Assembly (NCBI GenBank): GCA_016932915.1
Contig: JAFGBY010000096.1
Span: forward strand, 1-46,698
Reading direction: 5' to 3'
From: Acidobacteriota bacterium
GTDB taxonomy: Bacteria; Acidobacteriota; DATKUA01; JAFGBY01
Length of the DNA: 46,698 nt
Shown in pieces: positions 6,068 to 32,430 of this stretch. How positions within the stretch are numbered: the stretch's first letter is position 1; the number at the start of each line of letters is the position of its first letter. The position numbers were made by a program, and so were the translations under genes. Below the pieces are notes generated by a model that was not told where the DNA came from, made no database searches, and was given only the letters and a program-made list of their open reading frames with translations.

Positions 6068-6718
6068 TTATTTTTTCTTAAGGTTTTCGTGATCCTTAAG
6101 AAAGTTTTCAAGCCCGATATCTGTTAACGGGTGTTTAATTAGCTGTTTAATAACCTTAAACGGGATAGTCGCCACGTCTGAGCCCATCAGCGCGGCGCGC
6201 AGAACATGGTGCGGGTGGCGGATGGATGCGGTGAGTATCTGTGTTTCGAAGCCATAGTTATCGAAGATAATCCTGATTTCCTCGATAATCTGCATCCCGT
6301 CACGCCCGATGTCATCTATTCTACCGACGAACGGGCTTACGAATGTCGCTCCGGCTTTTGCCGCGAGCAATGCCTGTATCGGCTGGAACACCAGTGTAAC
6401 GTTCGTTTTTATTCCTGCTTCTGTACATGCCTTTGTGGCTTTTATACCATCCATCGTCATCGGGAGTTTGATTACAATATTTTTATGTAGGGCAGCGAGA
6501 TGTTTAGCTTCTTTCATCATACCGTCGAAATCGGTCGAAACTACTTCCGCGCTGATTGGCCCGTCCACGAGTTCACATATCTTTTTCATATGTGAATCAT
6601 GATCTGTTACTCCTTCCTTAGCTATAAGTGAAGGATTAGTCGTAACGCCGTCGATTAGCCCCATCTGAGAGGCTTCCTTGATCTCTTCAAGATTAGCTGT
6701 ATCTATAAAAAATTTCAT
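6068..6718 (-). CDS. tal: Transaldolase (small, TalC/Fsa-like family)
   Basis: This 216-residue TIM-barrel aldolase belongs to the small transaldolase / fructose-6-phosphate aldolase family. The Schiff-base lysine is Lys84 in [16 protein letters not shown] (about 24-32) and [12 protein letters not shown] (about 157-168) are family hallmarks. Two positions separate true transaldolases from fructose-6-phosphate aldolases: here residue 58 is Glu (ISAEVV) and residue 130 is Phe (SPFVGRID). E. coli FsaA has Gln59 and Tyr131, so transaldolase activity in the non-oxidative pentose phosphate pathway is favoured. It sits 25 bases from the symporter gene and 8 bases from the zinc-cluster gene. Confidence 0.92.
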
Positions 6719-6743
6719 CCTGGTCTCCTGAACTGTTTTCTAA

Positions 6744-8222
6744 CTATGCTTTAGCTTTTTTAGTAAAAAGAGCTTCATATTCTTTCGGGTCTGGTTTCTT
6801 GTCAAGTAAAGATACAATTACGAGGCTTCCAATTGATATTATCATAGCCGGATATATCAATGGGATACCCCACGGATCGCCGTCGATGACTTTTTCTGCT
6901 GGTAGTAAATAAGTCATTATTTTAAGAAATATTGATACTACAACACCGCTTGTAATCGATACCAGGCCACCGAGTTTAGTTACTCTTTTCCAGGAAAGAG
7001 CGGCTATAAGCGCTGGCGTAATCGCGACGCCGTAAATTGTATATGCGAAAAATGCCTGCTCAAGTACTGACTTCATATACATTGCCATAAAGAAGGCAAC
7101 TACGCCGAGGACTACAACAATAACTTTCTGCATCACGACGAGATTTCTCTGTTTTGTCTCTTTTTTGGAAAACCTCTGGTAGATATCACGCATAATATTT
7201 GTCGATGGAGATAAGAGGTAATTCATCGAGGTTGAGAGAACTACAACAACCGCGGCGGCAAGAAGAAGGATTCCAACCGGAGTCGGAACTGCATACCTGG
7301 CGGCGAGGAGCACAAGTTTTCCTCCGTCTTCAGGACCGGTAAGGTGTTTTTGAATCTCTGGTGAAGCATATGCGAACACAGCAATAACGACTACGACGGT
7401 CTCAACAATAACTGTACCGATAACCCACCAGATTACTGATTTTTTAGCTGCTTGGGGGGTTTTAGCGCTGTAAAATTTCTGGTACATACTCTGCACGCCG
7501 AGTAGGAGCAACATTGTAGCGAAGAAATAGCTCAGCGCTTTTAAAACAGGGTGAGCACCGAAGGAACTGTTAAACGCCTGGAAGTGCTCCGCGGGAAGCG
7601 TTGCTTCCGCTCCGGAAAGTCCCCCGGCAAACCCGACAACAAACGGTACTGCTATGCAGCAGGCAAGCAGGATAATAATCCCGTTCGGCAGGTCGGTATA
7701 AGCGACCGCCATCATACCGGCAAGTGCTGTGAATGTAATAACAAAAATGGCCGTAAGAATAGTTCCGAGCTGCGCGCTAATGCTTCCGTCAGTAATGACG
7801 TTTAATATAAAACCTCCAGCTTTAAACTGATAGGAAACTATAACTGTAAAACTGATGATAAGAGCGATTGCTCCGATTACCCTCGAAGCGGGACCAAAGC
7901 GGACTTCCAGGATATCTCCAATTGTGTATTGGCCGAAACTCCGGATTTTTGCGGCAAGGAAGTATATTATAATAATACCTACCCATGCTCCGGCAGCCAT
8001 CCACAATGCGCTGAATCCGGCTTTTGCGGCAAACTCGGCACCCGCAATAAATGTACCGCTTCCAATCCAAGTACAAACCAGAGTGAAAACCATAACGAAA
8101 GTTGAGAGTGAGCGCCCTGCAACCATGAAATCATCCTGGTTTTTAACCTTAAAGCTTCTGTAAAAGTTGAAACCCATCAATACCAGCAGGTATGCCAGTA
8201 TGATAAAGAGATAAATTCCCAT
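6744..8222 (-). CDS. Sodium:solute symporter (SSS family)
   Basis: This 492-residue integral membrane protein has about 13 hydrophobic segments, the normal SSS size and layout. The N-terminus has YLLVLMGFNFYRS, then DDFMVAGRSLSTF, and TWIGSGTFIAGAEFA (about 52-66), which is the conserved SSS helix-1 region. GDILEVRFGP and AGMMAVAYTDLPNGII are also typical of PutP-like transporters. It imports an organic solute with Na+ across the inner membrane, but the substrate is not readable. It is 15 bases downstream of a putative Xaa-Pro peptidase. A proline or amino-acid substrate would fit that context, but this is only inference. Confidence 0.9.
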   Translation of the reverse strand: MGIYLFIILAYLLVLMGFNFYRSFKVKNQDDFMVAGRSLSTFVMVFTLVCTWIGSGTFIAGAEFAAKAGFSALWMAAGAWVGIIIIYFLAAKIRSFGQYTIGDILEVRFGPASRVIGAIALIISFTVIVSYQFKAGGFILNVITDGSISAQLGTILTAIFVITFTALAGMMAVAYTDLPNGIIILLACCIAVPFVVGFAGGLSGAEATLPAEHFQAFNSSFGAHPVLKALSYFFATMLLLLGVQSMYQKFYSAKTPQAAKKSVIWWVIGTVIVETVVVVIAVFAYASPEIQKHLTGPEDGGKLVLLAARYAVPTPVGILLLAAAVVVVLSTSMNYLLSPSTNIMRDIYQRFSKKETKQRNLVVMQKVIVVVLGVVAFFMAMYMKSVLEQAFFAYTIYGVAITPALIAALSWKRVTKLGGLVSITSGVVVSIFLKIMTYLLPAEKVIDGDPWGIPLIYPAMIISIGSLVIVSLLDKKPDPKEYEALFTKKAKA

Positions 8223-8237
8223 AATTAATTACTCCGG

Positions 8238-9425
8238 TTAACAGTCTATTATAATTATGTCTTCCTGTATTGGTCCCGTGACCTCTACCTTCCCCTCAGG
8301 CGTTATAAACACATCAACCTCGCTGCGTACGCCTATTCTTTCATCCGGCATGTATACCCCTGGTTCGACTGAGTGCAATATGCCTGGGACAATCTTTCTC
8401 TCATCCTTGGTTTCGAGGTTGTCTATATGAACGGCGTTTCCGTGCACTTCCCTGCCGATACTGTGCCCGGTTCTATGCACGAAGAACTGGTCAAATCCTT
8501 TGCCTTTTATATAATCGCGGCAGGCTTTATCAACTTCCCAGCCACCACATTCCTTGCCGGATTCGATTTTGTTTCTTTCGAATTCTATCGCGGCGTCTCT
8601 TCCGCCTTTTACGACTTCCCAGACTTCCTGGTAACGAGCCGGGATATCCTTACCAGCGTAACCCATCCAGGTTACGTCATAGTAGATACCGTCCGGGTCG
8701 TCCACCCTTGCCCAGAGATCAATAAGGACTATATCGCCTTTCTTGATTTCAACAGCGACCGCTGGTGTTGGATCGAAATGCGGGTCGGCTGCATGCTCAT
8801 TAACACCGACTATCGGGGGCATCTCATCACATGTCAGGCCATTCTCACCGAATTTTTTATCAATATACTGCTGAATATCATATTCAGTAATCTTTTTCCC
8901 CTCGCGCAGGCATCTGCCGATTTCCGCAAATGCTTCATCTTTAATTCTATGGATAATCTCGCCCGCTTTTTTATGGAGTTTGTATCCTTTTTCATCAACC
9001 ATCCCCTCGAACTGCTGGATCAGGTCTGCAGAAGATACTACTTCCACTCCTGTTGATTTGATCAATTCGACCGTTCCAGCATCCACCGTTGAAACATACG
9101 GGATGTTGTTCATCGGGCTGTACTGCATAGCTATTTTTTTAGCCTTACCAACTACATCTTTTAATAATGCATGCCGTTTTTCCCATTCAAGGTAGAAATT
9201 TTTCTTACCCGGAAGGCTATCCAGTTTTGTCGGTTCTACGGTGCTTACAATTTTCTGCGGTTCACCATCAGCGGGAATATAATAATACCAACGTCTTGAT
9301 GTATGTTTATGTTCATCAAGACCCAGAATCCTGTAGCTTATAACTTCTCTATTAGCGAAATCAAAAAGCAGCCATCCATCGAGGCCTGCTTCTTTAATAG
9401 CGGATTGTATTGCTTTTAAGTCCAT
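8238..9425 (-). CDS. M24-family metallopeptidase (Xaa-Pro aminopeptidase-like)
   Basis: This 395-residue protein has a creatinase-like N-terminal domain (about 1-145) and a pita-bread catalytic domain. The five expected metal ligands can be placed: Asp236 (VLIDLWAR), Asp250 (YYDVTW), His321 (HRTGHSIG), Glu354 (HSVEPGVY) and Glu369 (VRSEVDVF). HFDPTPA before the first aspartate also fits the family. It probably removes N-terminal residues, perhaps before proline, in the cytoplasm. An AAGGAG ribosome site precedes the ATG. It is the first gene of the minus-strand run that continues into the Na+ symporter, so uptake plus peptide breakdown is a reasonable reading. Confidence 0.9.
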   Translation of the reverse strand: MDLKAIQSAIKEAGLDGWLLFDFANREVISYRILGLDEHKHTSRRWYYYIPADGEPQKIVSTVEPTKLDSLPGKKNFYLEWEKRHALLKDVVGKAKKIAMQYSPMNNIPYVSTVDAGTVELIKSTGVEVVSSADLIQQFEGMVDEKGYKLHKKAGEIIHRIKDEAFAEIGRCLREGKKITEYDIQQYIDKKFGENGLTCDEMPPIVGVNEHAADPHFDPTPAVAVEIKKGDIVLIDLWARVDDPDGIYYDVTWMGYAGKDIPARYQEVWEVVKGGRDAAIEFERNKIESGKECGGWEVDKACRDYIKGKGFDQFFVHRTGHSIGREVHGNAVHIDNLETKDERKIVPGILHSVEPGVYMPDERIGVRSEVDVFITPEGKVEVTGPIQEDIIIIDC

Positions 9426-9578
9426 TCCTGACTCCTTATTAAGAATATAAAATTGGCTTCATGATGCAGATGATAATAGCATACCGGTATCGGCTTTTCA
9501 AACTATCTCATTGTGAGGAATATTTATAATTAGATGGTTTTAAATTGATTCTGATGATGATGTCATTATATTAAATTT

Positions 9579-9610
9579 GAAATCCTGAACTGTAAACAAT
9601 CCAGGATTTC
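9579..9610 (-). terminator. Hairpin after the HExxH gene, possible terminator
   Basis: A perfect 9-bp stem (9579-9587 with 9602-9610, GAAATCCTG/CAGGATTTC) and a 14-base loop lie just past the stop of the minus-strand gene at 9637. The following bases are AT-rich but not a clean T run, so intrinsic termination is only possible. The rest of 9426-9636 holds no gene. Confidence 0.35.
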
Positions 9611-9636
9611 TATGTGGCATTTTGTTAATAATCAGT

Positions 9637-10968
9637 TTATTTTAGTTTTACTATATAGGTTTTTCCATCCTGCGTGATATCGACATTGTTTAATTCCAGT
9701 TTCAAGGAATCAGTTGTTATCTTTAAGTTTGTATTCTGTTGTTCAAATGTTGGTTGTTTCTTGCCTAAATTAAACTCAGCTTTTGTGATTCCATAATACA
9801 GTGGGTGTTTATCTGTCCCTGTTGTAATTCCGGATGTGTTCAGCATCTCCAGGTTGCTGTTCTTATTTCCAAGTTTAAGGAACCTTTTATGGATTATCCG
9901 TTTTTTATCCACTGATATGATATTCATTGGATCAAAACCTTTAGGGAATAGGGGATTTGCAGAAGAATCGACGATAATTTTATATTCATCCGGATCTTCG
10001 AATGATTTCAGATAACTCTTTATTTCAGTATTAATTTTTACGATCTGATTTTTCGTTAATTCTGTATATTCCTTTTTAACGCTTTCAGGTATTGCGTTAG
10101 AGGATTTATGATTTTTCAGGAATGCAGATATTAACTGATCGGGATAACTCCCTTCTATACAATCCAGTTTTTTTAAACCATCGGGATTGTATTTATGCCA
10201 TAATGAGATAAGAAGATAACCGGTAGTGTATGCCCGTTTTCTGGTTTCCGTCGGTTCGAATGAAGGAACGTCATCCGTTTGGATTAGTGGATTATTTGTA
10301 GCTATGTGTTCAATATAAGTAGCCGAGCCCTCAACTAGTTCCACCCGGCGTTCATAATTCGAGAATTCTGGAGAGATTGATTCATACCTCTGTGAACGAA
10401 GATCGATCGCCTGTCTCAACCAATCGAGGGATTCCTTTTTGCCTTTGGCTTTAAATGCTTTAACAAGGGCGTAAAGTTCCATCTTGCGAAGAAGAATATT
10501 TTCCTCTTCTCTGTATGGATACATAAACAGTACCGCTTCGTTCGTTCCCCATCCCGGATACTTCTCGGCTTGGTATACGTGGAATTTCTCATGAAGAATC
10601 AAACCGGCATTTTTGAGGATATAATCTTTTTCCATGGATAAATCTCTAAGCATCACCACAGCTATACTGATATCATTCAATTTAATTGAGGTATTTGCCC
10701 TTACCGCTGGATATAACCCTGTGTATACCATCCAGGTTTCGTTCTCATGTTCCATAAAATCCTTCGGTGGGTTCGGATGATTAACCAGGTAAGTATTCGT
10801 GCCATCGAAAACAACTAAAGGTATTGATTGAGGGTCGAATCCATCCCACAGGTTTTTATGAGAAAGCAATTTTTCCTGTTCTACGATTTTATGAACAACA
10901 TCGTAATCCGCTGATACGAATACAACAAATATAATTAACAATAAATGTGTTAAAGTTTGAATTTTCAA
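9637..10968 (-). CDS. Secreted HExxH protein, putative zinc metallopeptidase
   Basis: I do not recognise the family. The frame has no ATG near its start. I chose the TTG at 10968 (443 residues) because AAAGGA sits 6 bases before it; a TTG at 10983 lacks such a site. The N-terminus is a signal peptide ending near FVVFVSA. HEKFHVYQ gives a HExxH zincin motif (His126, Glu127, His130). VELVEGSATYIEH about 80 residues later offers Glu213 or Glu220 as a third ligand, as in gluzincins. KYPGWGTNEA and an arginine-rich helical stretch lie between. The C-terminal ~120 residues look beta-rich. It diverges from the CARDB gene at 11164 across 195 bases. Confidence 0.7.
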   Translation of the reverse strand: MKIQTLTHLLLIIFVVFVSADYDVVHKIVEQEKLLSHKNLWDGFDPQSIPLVVFDGTNTYLVNHPNPPKDFMEHENETWMVYTGLYPAVRANTSIKLNDISIAVVMLRDLSMEKDYILKNAGLILHEKFHVYQAEKYPGWGTNEAVLFMYPYREEENILLRKMELYALVKAFKAKGKKESLDWLRQAIDLRSQRYESISPEFSNYERRVELVEGSATYIEHIATNNPLIQTDDVPSFEPTETRKRAYTTGYLLISLWHKYNPDGLKKLDCIEGSYPDQLISAFLKNHKSSNAIPESVKKEYTELTKNQIVKINTEIKSYLKSFEDPDEYKIIVDSSANPLFPKGFDPMNIISVDKKRIIHKRFLKLGNKNSNLEMLNTSGITTGTDKHPLYYGITKAEFNLGKKQPTFEQQNTNLKITTDSLKLELNNVDITQDGKTYIVKLK

Positions 10969-22055: not shown

Positions 22056-24446
22056 ATGGTAGAAAAATTAAAATCAAAACCCGAATCGGTTTTTAAAAAG
22101 AAATCTTTCCTTGAAAAAAAGGTGGAACAATTTAAAACCAGGGTGATTACAAATGATACTGTTTGGGCTGTAACGACTGTATTATTGCTTCTGATTTTCA
22201 TGGGGCCCGAGATTATAAGGACTCCGTATCAGTATAAACTAGGCGATATCGCTCAATCCACAATAAAAGTTCCCACTGATATTACTGTCGCGGACGATTC
22301 AGGTATAGAACAGAGAAGGCTGGATGCTGTAGAAAAGACTCTTCTGATTTACGATAAGATACCTGACAGCGGTGACCTGGTTAAAAAATCTATCTCGAGA
22401 TTTTTCGAAAAAGGCAGGGCGATTTTAAGTGGTTTTATGAGGGAGAAAAATATAACCAGCTATCAGGACCTTGCACAGAGCAGCAGGTTTAAAACTGCCC
22501 GTGAACAGATCATCAATCGGTTGAAGGATTCATTCGAGATTAATGCAGATACGGAGCTTGTCAAATTTTTAATCAGTATTAATTTCAATAAACCTTTCGA
22601 AGAAAGCTCGCTCATTCTGGCTGACAGACTTTCAAAATACGACATTCTAAAATCCAGAGAAGAAATCGAGAACCTCAGTGGACGCGGCTTTCTGCTTCGC
22701 CGCCTTGGCAGTAATAATGAAGAGATAAAAACCGAGAGGATTGAAGACCTGTCGGGATATAGATCGATGGATGATATACCATCAATACTTTACCGGGAAT
22801 CACTTTCGCTCAATCTCGATACGATGGCTAAATTATATGCCCGTCGATTTGTCGGCCTTGAGATAAAGCCAAATATAGAGTTTAACAGCTCCCGGACAGA
22901 GGAAGCGCGCGCCAGGGCGGTCCTGGATGTCGAGCCGGTCTATTACAGTCTTAAAAAGGGTGAAGTAATAGTCCGTGAGGGAGATATCATCGATGAAACG
23001 GACTTGATAAAAATCTTCGGCTTGCAGCAACAGAGCCGGAAATTGAATTTTTATCTCAACCTTGTCGGATTGTTCATCATCCTTGTCTGTTTTATTGTCG
23101 CGATCCGTAAATATACAGAGTTCTTCCTCAAGAGATATCTTAAAGTAGCTAACCTGTTTATTCTTTTAAGCTCGATTCTGATATTACAGGTAGCATTGAT
23201 GAAGTTTTCTCTCTTTATATCCGAATCGATGGTGGATCATTTCCTTTTGAGCCCGTTGAATAAGATTGAATCATATTATTATATGATTCCGTTTGCGGCC
23301 GGTGCGATGTTGCTCACATCCCTTGTTAATCAGCAGATAGCCATTATCCTGGCAGTCGCAGTATCCATCTTCAGTGGATTAATGACCGCCGGTAATTTCT
23401 ATGTCGGATTCTTCGCGCTCTGCAGCAGCCTTGCTGCGATCTACGGCATCCGTCACTACCGTGAACGCGCGGCTATATTAAAAGCGGCAATGATAGTCTC
23501 TCTTGTAAATATCATTTTTGTGGCTGCGATCAACCTCTTCATGGTGAAGGTCGAAGCGGTAGTCTTCCTGTTCGAGATTTTTGCAGCGTTTATTGGCGGA
23601 TTTGTTGTAGCGTTTTTTGTTCAGTTCCTTCTGCCTATCCTGGAATCCGCGTTTGGTATTGCCACGGATATCAAACTTCTCGAACTTTCAAGTATGGACC
23701 GTGAACTTCTCAGGAGGCTTTCCGTGGAAACTCCCGGCACATATCAGCACTCCGTTATGGTTGGAATGCTCGCTGAGGCCGCGGCAAACGAAATAGCCGC
23801 CAACCCGCTTTTCTGCAGGGTCGCGACTCTTTACCATGATGTAGGTAAATTGCTTAAACCCGATTATTTTGTCGAGAACAATTCCGGTGCGCCGAAACTG
23901 CACAGGAAGCAGAAACCGAACATGAGCGCGCTTATCCTTGTGAACCACGTCAAGAAAGGTATCCAGATTGCCAGGGATAACAAGATACCTCAATCCATTA
24001 TCGATATTATCCCGCAGCATCACGGGACGCGGTTGATAAGTAACTTCTATGAACAGGCGAAAGAACTCGCCGACCCGGATATCGATGAAGTAAAAGAAGA
24101 TGATTTCAGGTATCCCGGCCCGAAGCCGCAGACAAAGGAAGCTGCTATTATTATGGTTGCGGATTCAATAGAAGCGGCATCAAGAACGTTAAAAAATCCT
24201 TCCCCTCAGAAGATCAGGGGAATGGTCGATGAGATTATAAATAATATTTTCATGGACGGACAGTTTGATGAATGTCAGCTGACTATGATTGACCTGCGGA
24301 AGATATCGGATGCGATTTCACGGAAGTTGACGACGATATTCCATGGCAGGGTTGAGTACCCTCAGTTCCAGTTCAACCGTCCGGAAGAGAGTAAAAGCGA
24401 GAATGTAAAGGATAAGGATTCCACAGCTAAAAATGAAAAAGAATAA
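22056..24446 (+). CDS. 7TM-HD membrane phosphodiesterase (PgpH/YqfF-like)
   Basis: This 796-residue protein has the architecture of PgpH, a cyclic-di-AMP phosphodiesterase. It has one N-terminal membrane helix (about 28-48, WAVTTVLLLLIFMG) and an extracytoplasmic 7TMR-HDED domain (about 50-325) with VEPVYYSLKKGEVIVREGD. About seven membrane helices follow at 330-540. A cytoplasmic HD domain lies at about 560-740, with GTYQHSVMVG, TLYHDVGKLLKPDYF (His-Asp near 590), IIPQHHGT and MVADSIEAAS. The catalytic residues appear intact. Hydrolysis of c-di-AMP is established for relatives. Its 3' end overlaps ybeY by 14 bases. Confidence 0.93.
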   Translation: MVEKLKSKPESVFKKKSFLEKKVEQFKTRVITNDTVWAVTTVLLLLIFMGPEIIRTPYQYKLGDIAQSTIKVPTDITVADDSGIEQRRLDAVEKTLLIYDKIPDSGDLVKKSISRFFEKGRAILSGFMREKNITSYQDLAQSSRFKTAREQIINRLKDSFEINADTELVKFLISINFNKPFEESSLILADRLSKYDILKSREEIENLSGRGFLLRRLGSNNEEIKTERIEDLSGYRSMDDIPSILYRESLSLNLDTMAKLYARRFVGLEIKPNIEFNSSRTEEARARAVLDVEPVYYSLKKGEVIVREGDIIDETDLIKIFGLQQQSRKLNFYLNLVGLFIILVCFIVAIRKYTEFFLKRYLKVANLFILLSSILILQVALMKFSLFISESMVDHFLLSPLNKIESYYYMIPFAAGAMLLTSLVNQQIAIILAVAVSIFSGLMTAGNFYVGFFALCSSLAAIYGIRHYRERAAILKAAMIVSLVNIIFVAAINLFMVKVEAVVFLFEIFAAFIGGFVVAFFVQFLLPILESAFGIATDIKLLELSSMDRELLRRLSVETPGTYQHSVMVGMLAEAAANEIAANPLFCRVATLYHDVGKLLKPDYFVENNSGAPKLHRKQKPNMSALILVNHVKKGIQIARDNKIPQSIIDIIPQHHGTRLISNFYEQAKELADPDIDEVKEDDFRYPGPKPQTKEAAIIMVADSIEAASRTLKNPSPQKIRGMVDEIINNIFMDGQFDECQLTMIDLRKISDAISRKLTTIFHGRVEYPQFQFNRPEESKSENVKDKDSTAKNEKE

Positions 24447-24882
24447 TAAAATATCGGTCACAGTTGCCGTTTACCACGAACATCCAGATTTACCGGAAGA
24501 ATGGGTGGAAGAGGAGCTGTTGACAATAATGAATCTGCTGGAGGTCGATGCCGATGAAGTATCGATAGCTCTGGTGGATGATAAACAGATGAAAGAATAT
24601 AATAAATCGTACCGTGGGATAGACAGCCCTACGGATGTCCTCTCGTTTGCTTATAATGAGATCAACGAAGAAGGTAAATACAACCTGGGAGATATCGTCA
24701 TCTCTGTGGAGACCGCTGAGGCACAGGCTGCCGAGATGGGGCACAGCTTGAGAGATGAATGCACTGTCCTGATGGCGCATGCGGCACTTCACCTGCTGGG
24801 ATTTGATCATGAGAAGGATTCAGGAGAGATGTCCAAGAAACAGGAGGAACTGCTGGGTAAGATGAAAGCTGGCAGGGACTAG
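24433..24882 (+). CDS. ybeY: Endoribonuclease YbeY, rRNA maturation factor
   Basis: The zinc motif HAALHLLGFDHEKD (about 115-128) gives the three histidines of the UPF0054 family. SYRGIDSPTDVLSFAY (about 55-70) and GDIVISVETAEAQA are also conserved. The 149-residue length is normal. YbeY acts in 16S rRNA 3'-end maturation and ribosome quality control. It overlaps the 7TM-HD gene and is followed 4 bases later by the CorC/TlyC gene, the common phoH-ybeY-corC-era neighbourhood. Confidence 0.95.
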   Translation: MKKNNKISVTVAVYHEHPDLPEEWVEEELLTIMNLLEVDADEVSIALVDDKQMKEYNKSYRGIDSPTDVLSFAYNEINEEGKYNLGDIVISVETAEAQAAEMGHSLRDECTVLMAHAALHLLGFDHEKDSGEMSKKQEELLGKMKAGRD

Positions 24883-27047: not shown

Positions 27048-28403
27048 ATGGTCACAGCGGGTAAGGAGAAGCTGCTTGTAATTGGCGGCGGTGCGGCGGG
27101 AATGTCGGCGGCTTCGCGGGCAAGACGGCTCCGCCCGGGGATGGATATCACGGTGCTGGAATCCACCGGGTATGTCTCCACGGCGCTCTGCGGCATCCCT
27201 TTTTACCTTGCGGGAAAGGCAAATTTCGAACAGCTGATCCACTACACCCCGGAATTCTTCACGTGCGAGAGAAATATCGAAATCCTTTTAAATACTTCCG
27301 TTACCGAAATTAACCGGTCCGCTTCTGTCATTAAGTATGAAAATATCCTCACCAGCGGAGCAGGCGAGATGCCTTATGATTATCTTCTCATCGCTTCCGG
27401 AGGGAAAGCCGCATGGCCGAATATAAAGTTCCCTAGGGAAGCCAAAAACCTGTTCACGGTGAGAAGTCTGGATGACGCGCGGAATCTTAAAAATTATATT
27501 GAAAAGAATAATCCAAAATCAGCGGTTATAATAGGAATAGGCGCGCACGGGATCGCGCTTGCTGAGGCCCTCCTGGAGCGAAATATCAAGGTGACAATGA
27601 TAGATTCCGCAACGCCTTTTGGATATCTCAGCGATGAACAGCGGGGATTCCTGTTCGATAAGATGTTGGAAAAGGGGATTGAAATCCTGACCTGTGAGCG
27701 GATACTGGGCGCTCATGGGGATACGACACTCGAAGGGTTGGATACCGATTCGGGAAAAATCATTGGCGATATATTTATTCTCGCTGCCGGGTACAGATCC
27801 GACGGCGCTCTGGCCGAAGACGCCGGGCTGGAGATGCTTCACGGCGCGGCGATAAAGGTGGATGATTTTCAGCGGACATCGGACTTCAATATCTTCGCCG
27901 CGGGTGACTGCGCCGGTGTGAGGTGCATGCTAACGGGCGAACGGATAATCCATTCCACCGCTGCAGTGGCGAACAAGACCGGTTACGCGGCGGGGGGTAA
28001 TATCTGTGACGAGAAGACGAGGTTCCCCGGGACGGTGAGGACAAAGATATTCACCTTTGCCGATGCCGTTGTCGGCTCGGTGGGCCTCAGCGAATCTGAA
28101 GCGCATGGTTTTGGCTTTCCGTATAGTTCTGTTTTTGTAAAAGCCCAGGAGAAGCCCGGCTACGCCGGAGGAGGGGATATGCTCCTGCAGATGATATTTA
28201 ACACTAAGACCGGAAAAATCCTCGGCGTCCAGGCAGCAGGCAGCGCGGGAACCCACGCCCTGGTCGATACTGCCATTGCAGTAATCACTACGGGTATGAA
28301 ACTGGATGAACTATCAAATCTCGACCTTTCTTATAATCCGGCTGTATCAAACGCCTACAGCCCCCTCCACTACGCCGCCCGAAAAGCTTTAAAAAATTTG
28401 TAG
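27048..28403 (+). CDS. FAD/NAD(P)H disulfide oxidoreductase, CoA-disulfide reductase-like
   Basis: This 451-residue flavoprotein has an N-terminal FAD fold LLVIGGGAAGMSAASRARR (about 7-25). A single redox cysteine is placed as in CoA-disulfide reductase and NADH oxidase (VSTALCGIPFYLAG, Cys at about 47). An NAD(P)H Rossmann fold follows (SAVIIGIGAHGIALAEALLE, about 166-185), then FAD motif FNIFAAGDCAG (about 282-292) and a dimerisation domain ending in YNPAVSNAYSPLHYAA. It probably reduces disulfides or polysulfides, or consumes oxygen. It begins 18 bases after era and is richer in G+C than its downstream neighbours. Confidence 0.9.
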   Translation: MVTAGKEKLLVIGGGAAGMSAASRARRLRPGMDITVLESTGYVSTALCGIPFYLAGKANFEQLIHYTPEFFTCERNIEILLNTSVTEINRSASVIKYENILTSGAGEMPYDYLLIASGGKAAWPNIKFPREAKNLFTVRSLDDARNLKNYIEKNNPKSAVIIGIGAHGIALAEALLERNIKVTMIDSATPFGYLSDEQRGFLFDKMLEKGIEILTCERILGAHGDTTLEGLDTDSGKIIGDIFILAAGYRSDGALAEDAGLEMLHGAAIKVDDFQRTSDFNIFAAGDCAGVRCMLTGERIIHSTAAVANKTGYAAGGNICDEKTRFPGTVRTKIFTFADAVVGSVGLSESEAHGFGFPYSSVFVKAQEKPGYAGGGDMLLQMIFNTKTGKILGVQAAGSAGTHALVDTAIAVITTGMKLDELSNLDLSYNPAVSNAYSPLHYAARKALKNL

Positions 28404-28470
28404 CCCAATACAACTTTTGAAATAAATTTCGAAAATTCAGCTACTTTAGGTATTGATTGAGATGAACTTT

Positions 28471-28495
28471 GTCACCCCGGACTTGATCCGGGGTC
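28471..28495. repeat. Palindromic intergenic repeat (CCCCGGA type)
   Basis: ACCCCGGA (28474-28481) pairs perfectly with TCCGGGGT (28487-28494) around a 5-base loop, within GTCACCCCGGACTTGATCCG. Repeats of this form are scattered between genes in many bacterial genomes. No T run follows, so it is not a canonical terminator. The rest of 28404-28681 is AT-rich with no supported gene. Confidence 0.7.
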
Positions 28496-28681
28496 TTAAA
28501 GAACTTAAGTATCTCTTAGAAGAAAAAAGTAACCCTATTTCCTCTGCAAGTACGATATGCGAGGATTTTCCAACAAAACAAGGCGCTCTAATGATAGGAG
28601 ATATTATTAACTATTTTCGGTGGTAAACAATATATCCGGAATGGATATAAAGAATTTTTAATAGATAAAAAAATCTAATCG

Positions 28682-29818
28682 CTAGAAACCTTCTTCATTA
28701 TTACCACTTAAGAAATCAACTAGCTGCTTGATTCTTTCAAATAGTTCATCATAAGTTATTATTTCAATCCCATGCAAATGTGATCGAAATAACTCAAACG
28801 AACTTGATTGTTCCTTTGAAATTATCTGATTTCTATAATTCCCAGCAATAATTACACAATTAGGTTCAAATGATTTAAATTCATTCTCACTCTTTGCTAA
28901 TATTGAGTGGTACTCTTTCTGAAGTGTATCTTTGTAGTTTATTATTTGAGCAATAGCACCTGATAATTCAGATGAGATAGGATTGACATTTCTATATTCT
29001 CCACCTAATAGTTTTGTAGCAGGTGTTTTAATTTCTAATAAGACAATATTGTTACTTATTTCATTTTTTAGAACAAAGTCGACATTCTTTCCACCTTCAT
29101 TTGAAATAGATTTGCCTCCTAAATATGCTCTTTCTCCGAAAATAATTACTGGGGAAGCAAATACCTGTGATAGAACAAATGAGTATTTAGTAAAAAAGTT
29201 TTGCCAAAATGATTCATTATTATTATGCGTATTTTTTTTCCATTCATTAAGAACAATGTTAAATGTCTGAATCCCAATTACGCTGTTTAATTGTTGCAGA
29301 TTATTTATATCCAGTTGCTGCAATAATTTAACAGACTCAATTGGATCATCTGCTTTTGAGATCCAAGTTAATAGCTTGCTAAGAAGTTTAGAACCGTTTT
29401 GAGGATTGTTATCTAATAATTTAATAAGTTCATAATCGTTGGAATTCAATAAAGATTGTAATCCCTCATCTATCGGAATGTATGTCGTTGTTCCTCGCGG
29501 TATTCCTTCTTGTTCATATAGTTCATATAATGTCCTCAAATTGTTATATAAATTTCTAAGCTCACTACCTTTTAAAATGAGTTTTACTCCTTCACCAGCC
29601 TTTAACTTAGATAAATTGATATTTGGAGAATCTTCCCATTCTTCATTTTTTCCCTTACGTTGGTAAATAAAAACACCCTTAACTGAAGCGTTGATATCTT
29701 TCTGATTTGTAATTATTAACGGTCTAAATATAAGGCGTGTTGTATCTTTTTCACGTAAAATAATATCATCTGTTTCAGCTGAGTTTTTAGAGGTTGGTCT
29801 TACTTTTAATTCTTTCAT
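28682..29818 (-). CDS. sduA: Shedu-family (DUF4263) anti-phage nuclease
   Basis: The C-terminal third matches the Shedu nuclease: NVDFVLKNE, then VLLEIKTPATKLL, then EYRNVNPISSELSGAIAQI. This gives a PD-(D/E)xK-like site (Asp247, Glu262, Lys264) with Gln291 in the following helix, and CVIIAGNY closes the fold. Shedu is a known single-gene phage-defence system; the N-terminal ~200 residues are the variable sensing part. I chose the ATG at 29818 (378 residues, AGGAAG upstream) over a GTG at 29848 without a ribosome site. The gene is strikingly AT-rich compared with the genes on both sides, which suggests transfer. An unrecognised zinc-ribbon gene lies upstream on the same strand. Confidence 0.85.
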   Translation of the reverse strand: MKELKVRPTSKNSAETDDIILREKDTTRLIFRPLIITNQKDINASVKGVFIYQRKGKNEEWEDSPNINLSKLKAGEGVKLILKGSELRNLYNNLRTLYELYEQEGIPRGTTTYIPIDEGLQSLLNSNDYELIKLLDNNPQNGSKLLSKLLTWISKADDPIESVKLLQQLDINNLQQLNSVIGIQTFNIVLNEWKKNTHNNNESFWQNFFTKYSFVLSQVFASPVIIFGERAYLGGKSISNEGGKNVDFVLKNEISNNIVLLEIKTPATKLLGGEYRNVNPISSELSGAIAQIINYKDTLQKEYHSILAKSENEFKSFEPNCVIIAGNYRNQIISKEQSSSFELFRSHLHGIEIITYDELFERIKQLVDFLSGNNEEGF

Positions 29819-29846
29819 TGGAGATATCTTCCTGTTTGGTTTAATC

Positions 29847-29899
29847 ACAAATTATGATGTCTAATGAGATGAACCCTAATATTAAATGTCATAATTTGT
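29847..29899. promoter_or_regulatory. 11-bp inverted repeat upstream of the Shedu gene
   Basis: ACAAATTATGA (29847-29857) and TCATAATTTGT (29889-29899) are perfect inverted copies separated by 31 bases. They lie 29 to 81 bases before the chosen Shedu start codon. The arrangement could be paired operator half-sites or a messenger hairpin; which one cannot be told from sequence. Confidence 0.45.
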
Positions 29900-29922
29900 T
29901 TTTATTATTTACATCTATCCTT

Positions 29923-29994
29923 TCAGGGTTTAGTAACTTTATAGCACTTCAGGCCTTGATATTTAACACCAATAATTTTTTGCTCAATCTTCAT
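29923..29994 (-). CDS. Possible 23-residue peptide gene or gene remnant
   Basis: The frame begins with ATG at 29994 after a good GAGGAAAG ribosome site and encodes a peptide starting MKIEQKIIGVKYQG and ending KVTKP before TGA. The composition is lysine- and isoleucine-rich. It could be a small peptide, a leader, or the surviving 5' end of a lost gene. With 23 codons, chance is a serious alternative. Confidence 0.2.
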   Translation of the reverse strand: MKIEQKIIGVKYQGLKCYKVTKP

Positions 29995-30120
29995 GATCTT
30001 TCCTCATTCTTTTATGATGAGTTAATTTAAAATTTTCAGAGGTTTTTGAAAACTGTAATTTTTGATTTATTGAAAATTAAACCTCATTCAAATAAATTTT
30101 CTTTAATTGGTCGCTAATTT

Positions 30121-30591
30121 TCAGTGTATATCCACGAGTGGATACATAGAAAAGAAATTTCGATTCCAACCTTCGATTTTAGATGCATCATCTAAAAAAC
30201 GTTCTGATTCTTCAGGGCTGTTAAATTTCCATCTGCCTCCGGCTACGGGGGCACCATAACTCAAGAAAGGAATAGACCCTCCACGTTTATCCATCCAGTT
30301 TTGATACCATTCTGCATAACCTTCAATATCTACATTCGGTCTGAAGTATGTATACCTAGCAAATTCAAACATTCTGAATGAATTATGTACTTTGTGATAT
30401 TCTCTTTTAAAAATTGCTCCACAAGCGCAGAATTTGTCTTCAAATCGGGAAACTTCTTCATTCGTATCACCTAAAATAGCTTGATTAGGTGAAAAAACTT
30501 TTTGGCAATTTGGACACCTGTATTTATATGTAACAATACATTTTCCATCTTTAAACTCAATTGGTGTATGCTCAAGCGTGACTTCAATCAT
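30121..30591 (-). CDS. Unrecognised zinc-ribbon protein beside the Shedu gene
   Basis: I do not recognise this family. I chose the ATG at 30591 (156 residues) because GGAG precedes it; an upstream start at 30630 would add 13 residues with no ribosome site. A zinc ribbon is formed by CPNC (about 26-29) and CAC (about 54-56). The remaining ~95 residues are rich in aromatic residues (FRMFEFARYTYFRP, YAEWYQNWMDKRGG) with a GAPVAGGRWKF segment. There is no signal peptide. It shares the strand and the AT-rich composition of the Shedu gene, so both probably arrived together. A regulatory or defence-accessory role is only a guess. Confidence 0.65.
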   Translation of the reverse strand: MIEVTLEHTPIEFKDGKCIVTYKYRCPNCQKVFSPNQAILGDTNEEVSRFEDKFCACGAIFKREYHKVHNSFRMFEFARYTYFRPNVDIEGYAEWYQNWMDKRGGSIPFLSYGAPVAGGRWKFNSPEESERFLDDASKIEGWNRNFFSMYPLVDIH

Positions 30592-30705
30592 TTGGGGATC
30601 TCCATAGAAAAATATAAATACATATACCATACAATTCGAAGTATTGATAGATAAAATTAGATTTATTTTATGTGTTGATTACATACTGTTAACCATTATT
30701 CTGAT

Positions 30706-30733
30706 TTGACATAGCGGTGGTTTGTCTTAATAT
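30706..30733 (+). promoter_or_regulatory. Sigma-70-type promoter of the polyferredoxin gene
   Basis: A perfect TTGACA (30706-30711) is followed after 16 bases by TAATAT (30728-30733), a four-of-six match to the -10 box. It lies about 27 bases before the TTG start codon of the downstream gene. Confidence 0.5.
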
Positions 30734-30759
30734 AAGCTTATAAGTGAACAGGTATAAAA

Positions 30760-32430
30760 TTGACGGTAATCCTTTCAAGAAAGGGGGATAGAACCATCAA
30801 ACTTAAAAGAGCACGACAAATCGTTCAGATACTGGCGATCCTGCTTTTCTTTTTCCTTATAATCCAGACCGAATACAGGGGGACTAACCAGCTCCAGTAC
30901 CCTGTAAGGATATTCCTTGATTTCGACCCGCTTATCCTGGTCTCCACTCTGCTGAGCGCGCGGGGTATCCCAACCGGCTTACCGGCTGCGATGGGGCTTT
31001 CGCTTGTCCTGGTGGCGGTGACCGCCCTGATGGGGAGGGTGTTCTGCGGATGGGTCTGCCCGTTCGGGATAATCAATCATTTCGTCGGCTGGCTCAAACG
31101 GAAGAGAAAAGCTAAGAAAAAAGATTTTCTGGAAAAAGACCGCTACAGCGCCTGGCAGAAGTGGAAATACTGGCTGCTCACAGGGCTGCTGGTGGCTTCT
31201 CTGTTCTCGGTGCAGGTGACCGGGATATTCGATCCGCTTTCACTGGTGATACGCTCCTTCGCGGTCGCCGTGAACCCGGCGATCAACTTCATGCTGAGGG
31301 CTTTCTTCGACGCGGTTTATTTCCTCGGTATAGATTTCCTCACCGGCATCACCGAGCCGGTTTACGACCTGCTTAAAGATTCATACCTCTCGTTCAACCA
31401 GCCGCATTTTTCGTACACGGTTTTGATAGGCCTGATCTTCGTGGGGATTCTGCTGCTTAATCTCATCCGTTTCCGCTTCTGGTGCAGGTATATCTGCCCG
31501 CTGGGTGCTTTGCTCGGTGTGATCGGCAGGAGGAGCGCGCTGCAACTGAAGGTCTCGGATAAATGCACCGGCTGCAATAACTGCGTCACCCAATGCCCGG
31601 CGGCTGCTGAGCCTCAGGCGAAGAAGGGCGGGAAGGATCATGACTGGCGGCCTTCCGAGTGTATCTACTGCTGGAACTGTGTCGCCGAGTGCCCGACGAA
31701 TGCCCTGTCGTTCAAGTGGACTCTTCCGTTCAAGAGGGCAAAAACCACCGGAGTCGACCTTTCGAGAAGAGAGTTTGTGGCTTCAAGCGTCGCCGGGTTG
31801 CTGGCCGTCCCCGTGCTGCGTACCGGCACAAGGTACAAAGACCATTATGCCGACCCTTCTCTCATACGGCCACCGGGCTCGCTCATTGAGAAAGAATTCC
31901 TGCAGAGGTGCGTGCGCTGCGGCGAGTGCATGAAGGTCTGTCTCACAAATGTAATCCAGCCGGTATTTACCGAAGCCGGGCTGGAGGCGATGTTCACACC
32001 GAAGCTGGATATGAAAGCCGGTTACTGTGAATATAACTGCACCCTCTGCGGCCAGGTCTGCCCGACCGGCGCCATCAGGGAACTGAGGGAAGAAGAGCGG
32101 AGCGAGATAAAGATCGGCACCGCGTTTATAGATAAAAACCGCTGCATTCCTTACCAGATGGGCAATGACTGTATTGTATGCGAGGAGCACTGCCCGACCC
32201 CGGAAAAGGCGATATGGTTCGAGTATAAAGAGATGCTGAATGATTACGGGGAGAGAAAGGTAATCAAACTTCCGCGCGTTAACATGAAAAACTGCATAGG
32301 CTGCGGAATCTGTGAAAATAAATGCCCGGTTGTGGATATTCCTGCGATAAGAGTTACTTCGGTAGGCGAGACGAGAGACCCGAACCACCAGATGCTGCTG
32401 GAAGTATCAGCATCTGACAGTTACTATTAA
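30760..32430 (+). CDS. NapH/NapG-like membrane polyferredoxin fusion
   Basis: This 556-residue electron-transfer protein joins two parts. The first ~250 residues are a NapH-like membrane domain (about four helices) with the CGWVCPFG and CRYICPLGA motifs, followed by two 4Fe-4S motifs, CTGCNNCVTQCP and CIYCWNCVAECP. A twin-arginine-like SRREFVASSVAGLLAV starts at residue 335. A NapG-like part then carries four more clusters: CVRCGECMKVC, CTLCGQVCP, CIVCEEHCP and CIGCGICENKCP. Relatives pass electrons from quinol to periplasmic reductases, but no reductase gene is near. The start is TTG at 30760 with a weak AGG site. The gene is visibly GC-rich compared with the preceding insert. Confidence 0.87.
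   Translation: MTVILSRKGDRTIKLKRARQIVQILAILLFFFLIIQTEYRGTNQLQYPVRIFLDFDPLILVSTLLSARGIPTGLPAAMGLSLVLVAVTALMGRVFCGWVCPFGIINHFVGWLKRKRKAKKKDFLEKDRYSAWQKWKYWLLTGLLVASLFSVQVTGIFDPLSLVIRSFAVAVNPAINFMLRAFFDAVYFLGIDFLTGITEPVYDLLKDSYLSFNQPHFSYTVLIGLIFVGILLLNLIRFRFWCRYICPLGALLGVIGRRSALQLKVSDKCTGCNNCVTQCPAAAEPQAKKGGKDHDWRPSECIYCWNCVAECPTNALSFKWTLPFKRAKTTGVDLSRREFVASSVAGLLAVPVLRTGTRYKDHYADPSLIRPPGSLIEKEFLQRCVRCGECMKVCLTNVIQPVFTEAGLEAMFTPKLDMKAGYCEYNCTLCGQVCPTGAIRELREEERSEIKIGTAFIDKNRCIPYQMGNDCIVCEEHCPTPEKAIWFEYKEMLNDYGERKVIKLPRVNMKNCIGCGICENKCPVVDIPAIRVTSVGETRDPNHQMLLEVSASDSYY

What the first reader, a model, noticed from the sequence alone, without database searches (positions are those of the whole stretch)
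28404..30759. AT-rich defence insert: a Shedu nuclease gene and an unknown zinc-ribbon gene between GC-rich core genes
The two minus-strand genes at 28682-30591 look much more AT-rich than the flavoprotein gene before them and the polyferredoxin gene after them. The first is recognisably Shedu (DUF4263, PD-(D/E)xK site D247/E262/K264), a known phage-defence nuclease family. A palindromic repeat lies at the left border. Together this looks like a small horizontally acquired defence cargo in a stable chromosomal slot, without any visible mobility gene.
Basis: partly seen in the sequence, partly recalled or inferred. Interest (0 to 1): 0.6.

Follow-up and report, generated by a model that had tools for sequence, protein, structure and literature searches.

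The report
Ordinary Shedu anti-phage nuclease gene, AT-rich
A bacterial chromosome carries a foreign-looking, AT-rich pair of genes: one encodes a standard Shedu anti-phage nuclease, the other a small zinc-ribbon-like protein without known relatives, and there is no sign that the two work together.

Summary
28404-30759 is 30.9% GC, lower than each of 1,235 equal-sized blocks from about 248 kb of the same genome plus the rest of the window. The gene at 28682-29818 (-) is an intact, full-length Shedu SduA: both Pfam SduA domains are above cut-off and it matches the solved SduA 8TI8 end to end. The D247/E262/K264 motif is present.

The second gene (30121-30591, -) is an apparent ORFan with four zinc-ribbon cysteines. 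No relative was found in any collection searched, nor beside six Shedu relatives, so no partnership can be claimed.

Acquisition by transfer is likely but not proven. This genome is the only one held from its order, so no empty site could be tested, and the flavoprotein/polyferredoxin junction was not found elsewhere in the phylum. The two flanking genes are themselves at the GC-rich extreme of the genome, which exaggerates the contrast. The left-border palindrome is one of about 14 dispersed copies, not an insertion mark.

Verdict: an ordinary new Shedu member beside a gene of unknown function.

The parts
28682..29818 (-). sduA, Shedu anti-phage nuclease, 378 aa; SduA_N plus SduA_C PD-(D/E)xK domain; D247, E262, K264, Q291
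   Evidence: Pfam SduA_N 3.4e-37 and SduA_C 5.3e-28; PADLOC SduA 7e-129; PDB 8TI8 9.1e-75 over residues 4-372; residues counted; RBS-like AGGAAG upstream of ATG 29818
30121..30591 (-). 156-aa ORFan with CxxC (26, 29) and CxC (55, 57), zinc-ribbon-like N-terminal half; function unknown
   Evidence: sub-threshold Zn_ribbon_8 0.0015, FmdB-like 0.071; no relatives; GGAGAT ahead of ATG 30591
28471..28495 (.). dispersed REP-like palindrome GTCACCCCGGACTTGATCCGGGGTC
   Evidence: 4 exact copies of the 21-nt core genome-wide, 14 copies of the looser family
29819..30120 (.). 302-base intergenic gap between the two genes, with an AT-rich inverted repeat ACAAATTATGA/TCATAATTTGT upstream of sduA (within 29842-29904); no Rfam match
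   Evidence: the repeat finder I3, Rfam
27048..28403 (+). left flank: CoA-disulfide-reductase-like flavoprotein
   Evidence: TIGR03385 2.1e-91, below its curated cut-off
30760..32430 (+). right flank: NapH/NapG-like 4Fe-4S polyferredoxin
   Evidence: NCBIfam napH_ 1.1e-36, below cut-off; relatives up to 59% in the phylum

Best explanation
A probably horizontally acquired single-gene Shedu defence system sits between two chromosomal genes. The SduA protein (B. cereus type, with the SduA_N domain) most likely forms a homo-oligomer whose N-terminal part holds the C-terminal PD-(D/E)xK nuclease in check until invading DNA, probably linear ends, is engaged, whereupon it nicks or cuts that DNA. The neighbouring zinc-ribbon ORFan was probably carried in by the same or a separate acquisition and has no demonstrated link to Shedu. 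Shown here: homology, intact motif, anomalous composition, sporadic distribution. Inferred: acquisition, oligomerisation, trigger, DNA cleavage.
For: Both Shedu domains and full-length alignment to solved SduA 8TI8. Nuclease motif D/E/K conserved in six relatives; the 8TI9/8TIA construct carries Ala at the position of the motif Glu (alignment). Lowest-GC block sampled in the genome. Relatives scattered: 9 of 396 phylum genomes, plasmids of Priestia, Leptospira, Planktothrix. A Shedu relative in another genome of the phylum (G161) is likewise AT-rich (28.6%) near genes of 44-49% GC. DNA-end sensing by E. coli Shedu is summarised in PMC12904381.
Against: No empty site or close relative could be examined. 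The mechanistic data are for E. coli SduA, whose N-terminal part is not alignable to this one by sequence. No mobility gene, tRNA or convincing target-site duplication.
Confidence: 0.85

Rival explanations
1. Two-gene defence operon: the zinc-ribbon protein is an accessory sensor, regulator or immunity partner of Shedu.
For: Same strand, adjacent, both AT-rich.
Against: 302-base gap; no zinc-ribbon homologue in the fetched surroundings of the G161, G232, G320, Priestia, Leptospira or Planktothrix Shedu genes.
Confidence: 0.07
2. Vertically inherited lineage-specific genes whose low GC reflects relaxed or local composition, not recent transfer.
For: No close relatives to test; the flanks are unusually GC-rich, which exaggerates contrast.
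Against: GC3 of 0.21-0.26 is below every other gene of the window (next lowest 0.31); sporadic distribution.
Confidence: 0.1
3. The insert was moved by the palindromic repeat element at its left border (REP/MITE-like cargo).
For: Copies of the repeat family lie on both sides of a second AT-rich island (31.7% GC) with a GIY-YIG gene on contig C85.
Against: Only one border here has a copy; copies on C34 and C170 border no AT-rich island.
Confidence: 0.05

Closest known systems
Shedu SduA, PDB 8TI8 (from memory: the Bacillus cereus protein)
   Same: Full-length alignment, both domains, nuclease motif
   Different: Diverged sequence; host and genomic context differ
E. coli-type Shedu effector (PDB 8PS4/8PS5; source organism from memory)
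   Same: Nuclease half alignable (E 0.00099, residues 173-372)
   Different: N-terminal part not detectably related by sequence
FmdB/Zn_ribbon_8 zinc ribbons (for the second gene)
   Same: CxxC ... CxC arrangement, weak sub-threshold match
   Different: Below curated cut-offs; the remaining 100 residues match nothing

Membership tests
Shedu (SduA, DUF4263) | SduA_C / DUF4263 domain above curated cut-off | tested here: met
   98.6 bits versus cut-off 27
Shedu (SduA, DUF4263) | Intact PD-(D/E)xK residues | tested here: met
   D247, E262, K264 present and conserved in six relatives
Shedu (SduA, DUF4263) | N-terminal sensor/regulatory domain | tested here: met
   SduA_N 127.1 bits versus 27
Shedu (SduA, DUF4263) | Anti-phage activity / DNA cleavage | not testable with these tools
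   needs a bench assay
FmdB/Zn_ribbon_8 zinc ribbon (second gene) | Match above curated cut-off | tested here: not met
   19 bits versus 34.4 (Pfam); 13.2 versus 31.3 (NCBIfam)
Horizontally acquired insert | Empty site in close relatives | tested here: inconclusive
   Only this genome of its order is held; junction absent in phylum relatives
Horizontally acquired insert | Composition unlike the host genome | tested here: met
   GC lower than all 1,235 sampled blocks

The most novel reading that the evidence does not exclude
The ORFan zinc-ribbon protein is a previously undescribed accessory or regulator of a B. cereus-type Shedu nuclease.
Probability: 0.05. Interest if true: 0.45.

Novelty: new member of a known kind. 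Interest (0 to 1): 0.2.

Why it matters
It extends B. cereus-type Shedu to a poorly sampled bacterial lineage (phylum probably Acidobacteriota) and shows that a similarly AT-rich Shedu gene occurs in a second genome of the phylum. Otherwise it is one more instance of a known defence gene.

Tried and rejected
Structure prediction of the zinc-ribbon ORF from a single sequence: mean pLDDT 47, too poor for a fold search, so none was run. Searches for its relatives in the phylum, plasmids, phages, viral contigs and genome contigs: nothing. Genome-contig and viral-contig searches with Shedu: nothing confirmed; these use exact short peptide patterns and reach only close relatives. PDB hits of the zinc-ribbon ORF all at or above E 0.14. 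Rfam and tRNA searches: nothing. Promoter-like sites no more frequent than in shuffles. Direct and inverted repeats at the borders (D4, I8) are short and AT-rich; I regard them as chance in 30% GC DNA but did not test this. Sampling another phylum through a plasmid record was not possible.

Full report
Observation. The segment 28404-30759 has 30.9% GC, while 1,235 overlapping blocks of the same size from about 248 kb of the same genome plus the rest of the window average 42.0% (sd 3.5, minimum 34.4%); none is as low. Tetranucleotide deviation is also extreme (0.414 against 0.226 +/- 0.040; two blocks higher, both GC-rich). The contrast with the immediate neighbours is, however, enhanced by the neighbours: the flavoprotein (52.4%) and polyferredoxin (53.3%) genes are at or above the 99.8th percentile of the sampled blocks.

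The Shedu gene. The ORF at 28682-29818 (-) has an ATG with an RBS-like AGGAAG upstream and encodes 378 residues with Pfam SduA_N and SduA_C far above cut-off, PADLOC SduA 7e-129 and a full-length match to PDB 8TI8. D247, E262, K264 and Q291 are present; D, E and K are conserved in six relatives. It is the only SduA_C match in the genome. In 396 genomes of the phylum only nine, this one included, have any match, and only three others have full-length relatives (38-44% identity). One of these (G161) is likewise very AT-rich (28.6%) near genes of 44-49% GC (43% identity). Relatives also lie on plasmids of Priestia, Leptospira and Planktothrix.

The second gene. The 156-residue ORF at 30121-30591 has a GGAGAT ahead of its ATG and cysteines at 26, 29, 55 and 57. 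Zinc-ribbon models match only below their cut-offs. No relative was found in 396 phylum genomes, plasmids, phages, viral contigs or genome contigs (the last two searches reach close relatives only). No significant homologue lies in the fetched surroundings of six Shedu relatives. It is therefore an ORFan that shares the low GC of Shedu; a functional link is not supported. It is separated from sduA by 302 bases without a known RNA family.

Setting. The surroundings are ordinary chromosomal genes (greA, phoH-like, ybeY, corC-like, era, fbp, rpsT, type II secretion/pilus genes, def, fmt; named from the translations by knowledge, not by search). No tRNA and no recognised mobility gene. The order contains only this genome in the held set, so the empty-site test could not be made. 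In phylum relatives the polyferredoxin is found with up to 59% identity but without the flavoprotein, era or fbp nearby (in G059 an rpsT match lies about 6 kb away), and the flavoprotein's best relatives are only 36% identical. The 'stable slot' is thus untested. The phylum is probably Acidobacteriota: a genome of the same phylum (G232) carries DNA about 80% identical to plasmids of Granulicella and Acidisarcina.

Palindrome. GTCACCCCGGACTTGATCCGGGGTC at 28471-28495 belongs to a dispersed family: four exact copies of the core and 14 of a looser form, clustering on some contigs. On C85, copies flank another AT-rich island (31.7%) holding a GIY-YIG gene, but copies on C34 and C170 do not border such islands. 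It does not show how this insert arrived.

Mechanism. A review describes E. [quoted passage not shown] The nuclease half here is homologous; the N-terminal part is of the 8TI8 type, so the trigger may differ. This part is inference.

Verdict. A well-supported, ordinary new member of a known defence family in probably acquired DNA; the neighbour remains an orphan of unknown function.

Noticed in passing
G000 contig C85 about 23298-24768 (L065 13299-14769): A second AT-rich island (31.7% GC) between GC-rich core genes (pyrB-like and mqnC-like by eye), with a 245-aa gene (27% GC) and a GIY-YIG gene, flanked on both sides by copies of the same REP-like palindrome family.
   Followed up: partly
window 27048-28403 and 30760-32430: The flavoprotein and polyferredoxin genes lie at the very top of the sampled GC distribution and have GC3 0.59-0.68, so they are compositional outliers too.
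   Followed up: partly
L036 (G161 C85) 6623-9758: AT-rich Shedu relative (28.6% GC) followed by a 380-aa gene of unknown role and a small gene, inside another AT-rich stretch near genes of 44-49% GC.
   Followed up: no
window 29842-29904: Inverted repeat with perfect 11-nt arms ACAAATTATGA/TCATAATTTGT just upstream of sduA; could be an operator, or chance in AT-rich DNA.
   Followed up: no
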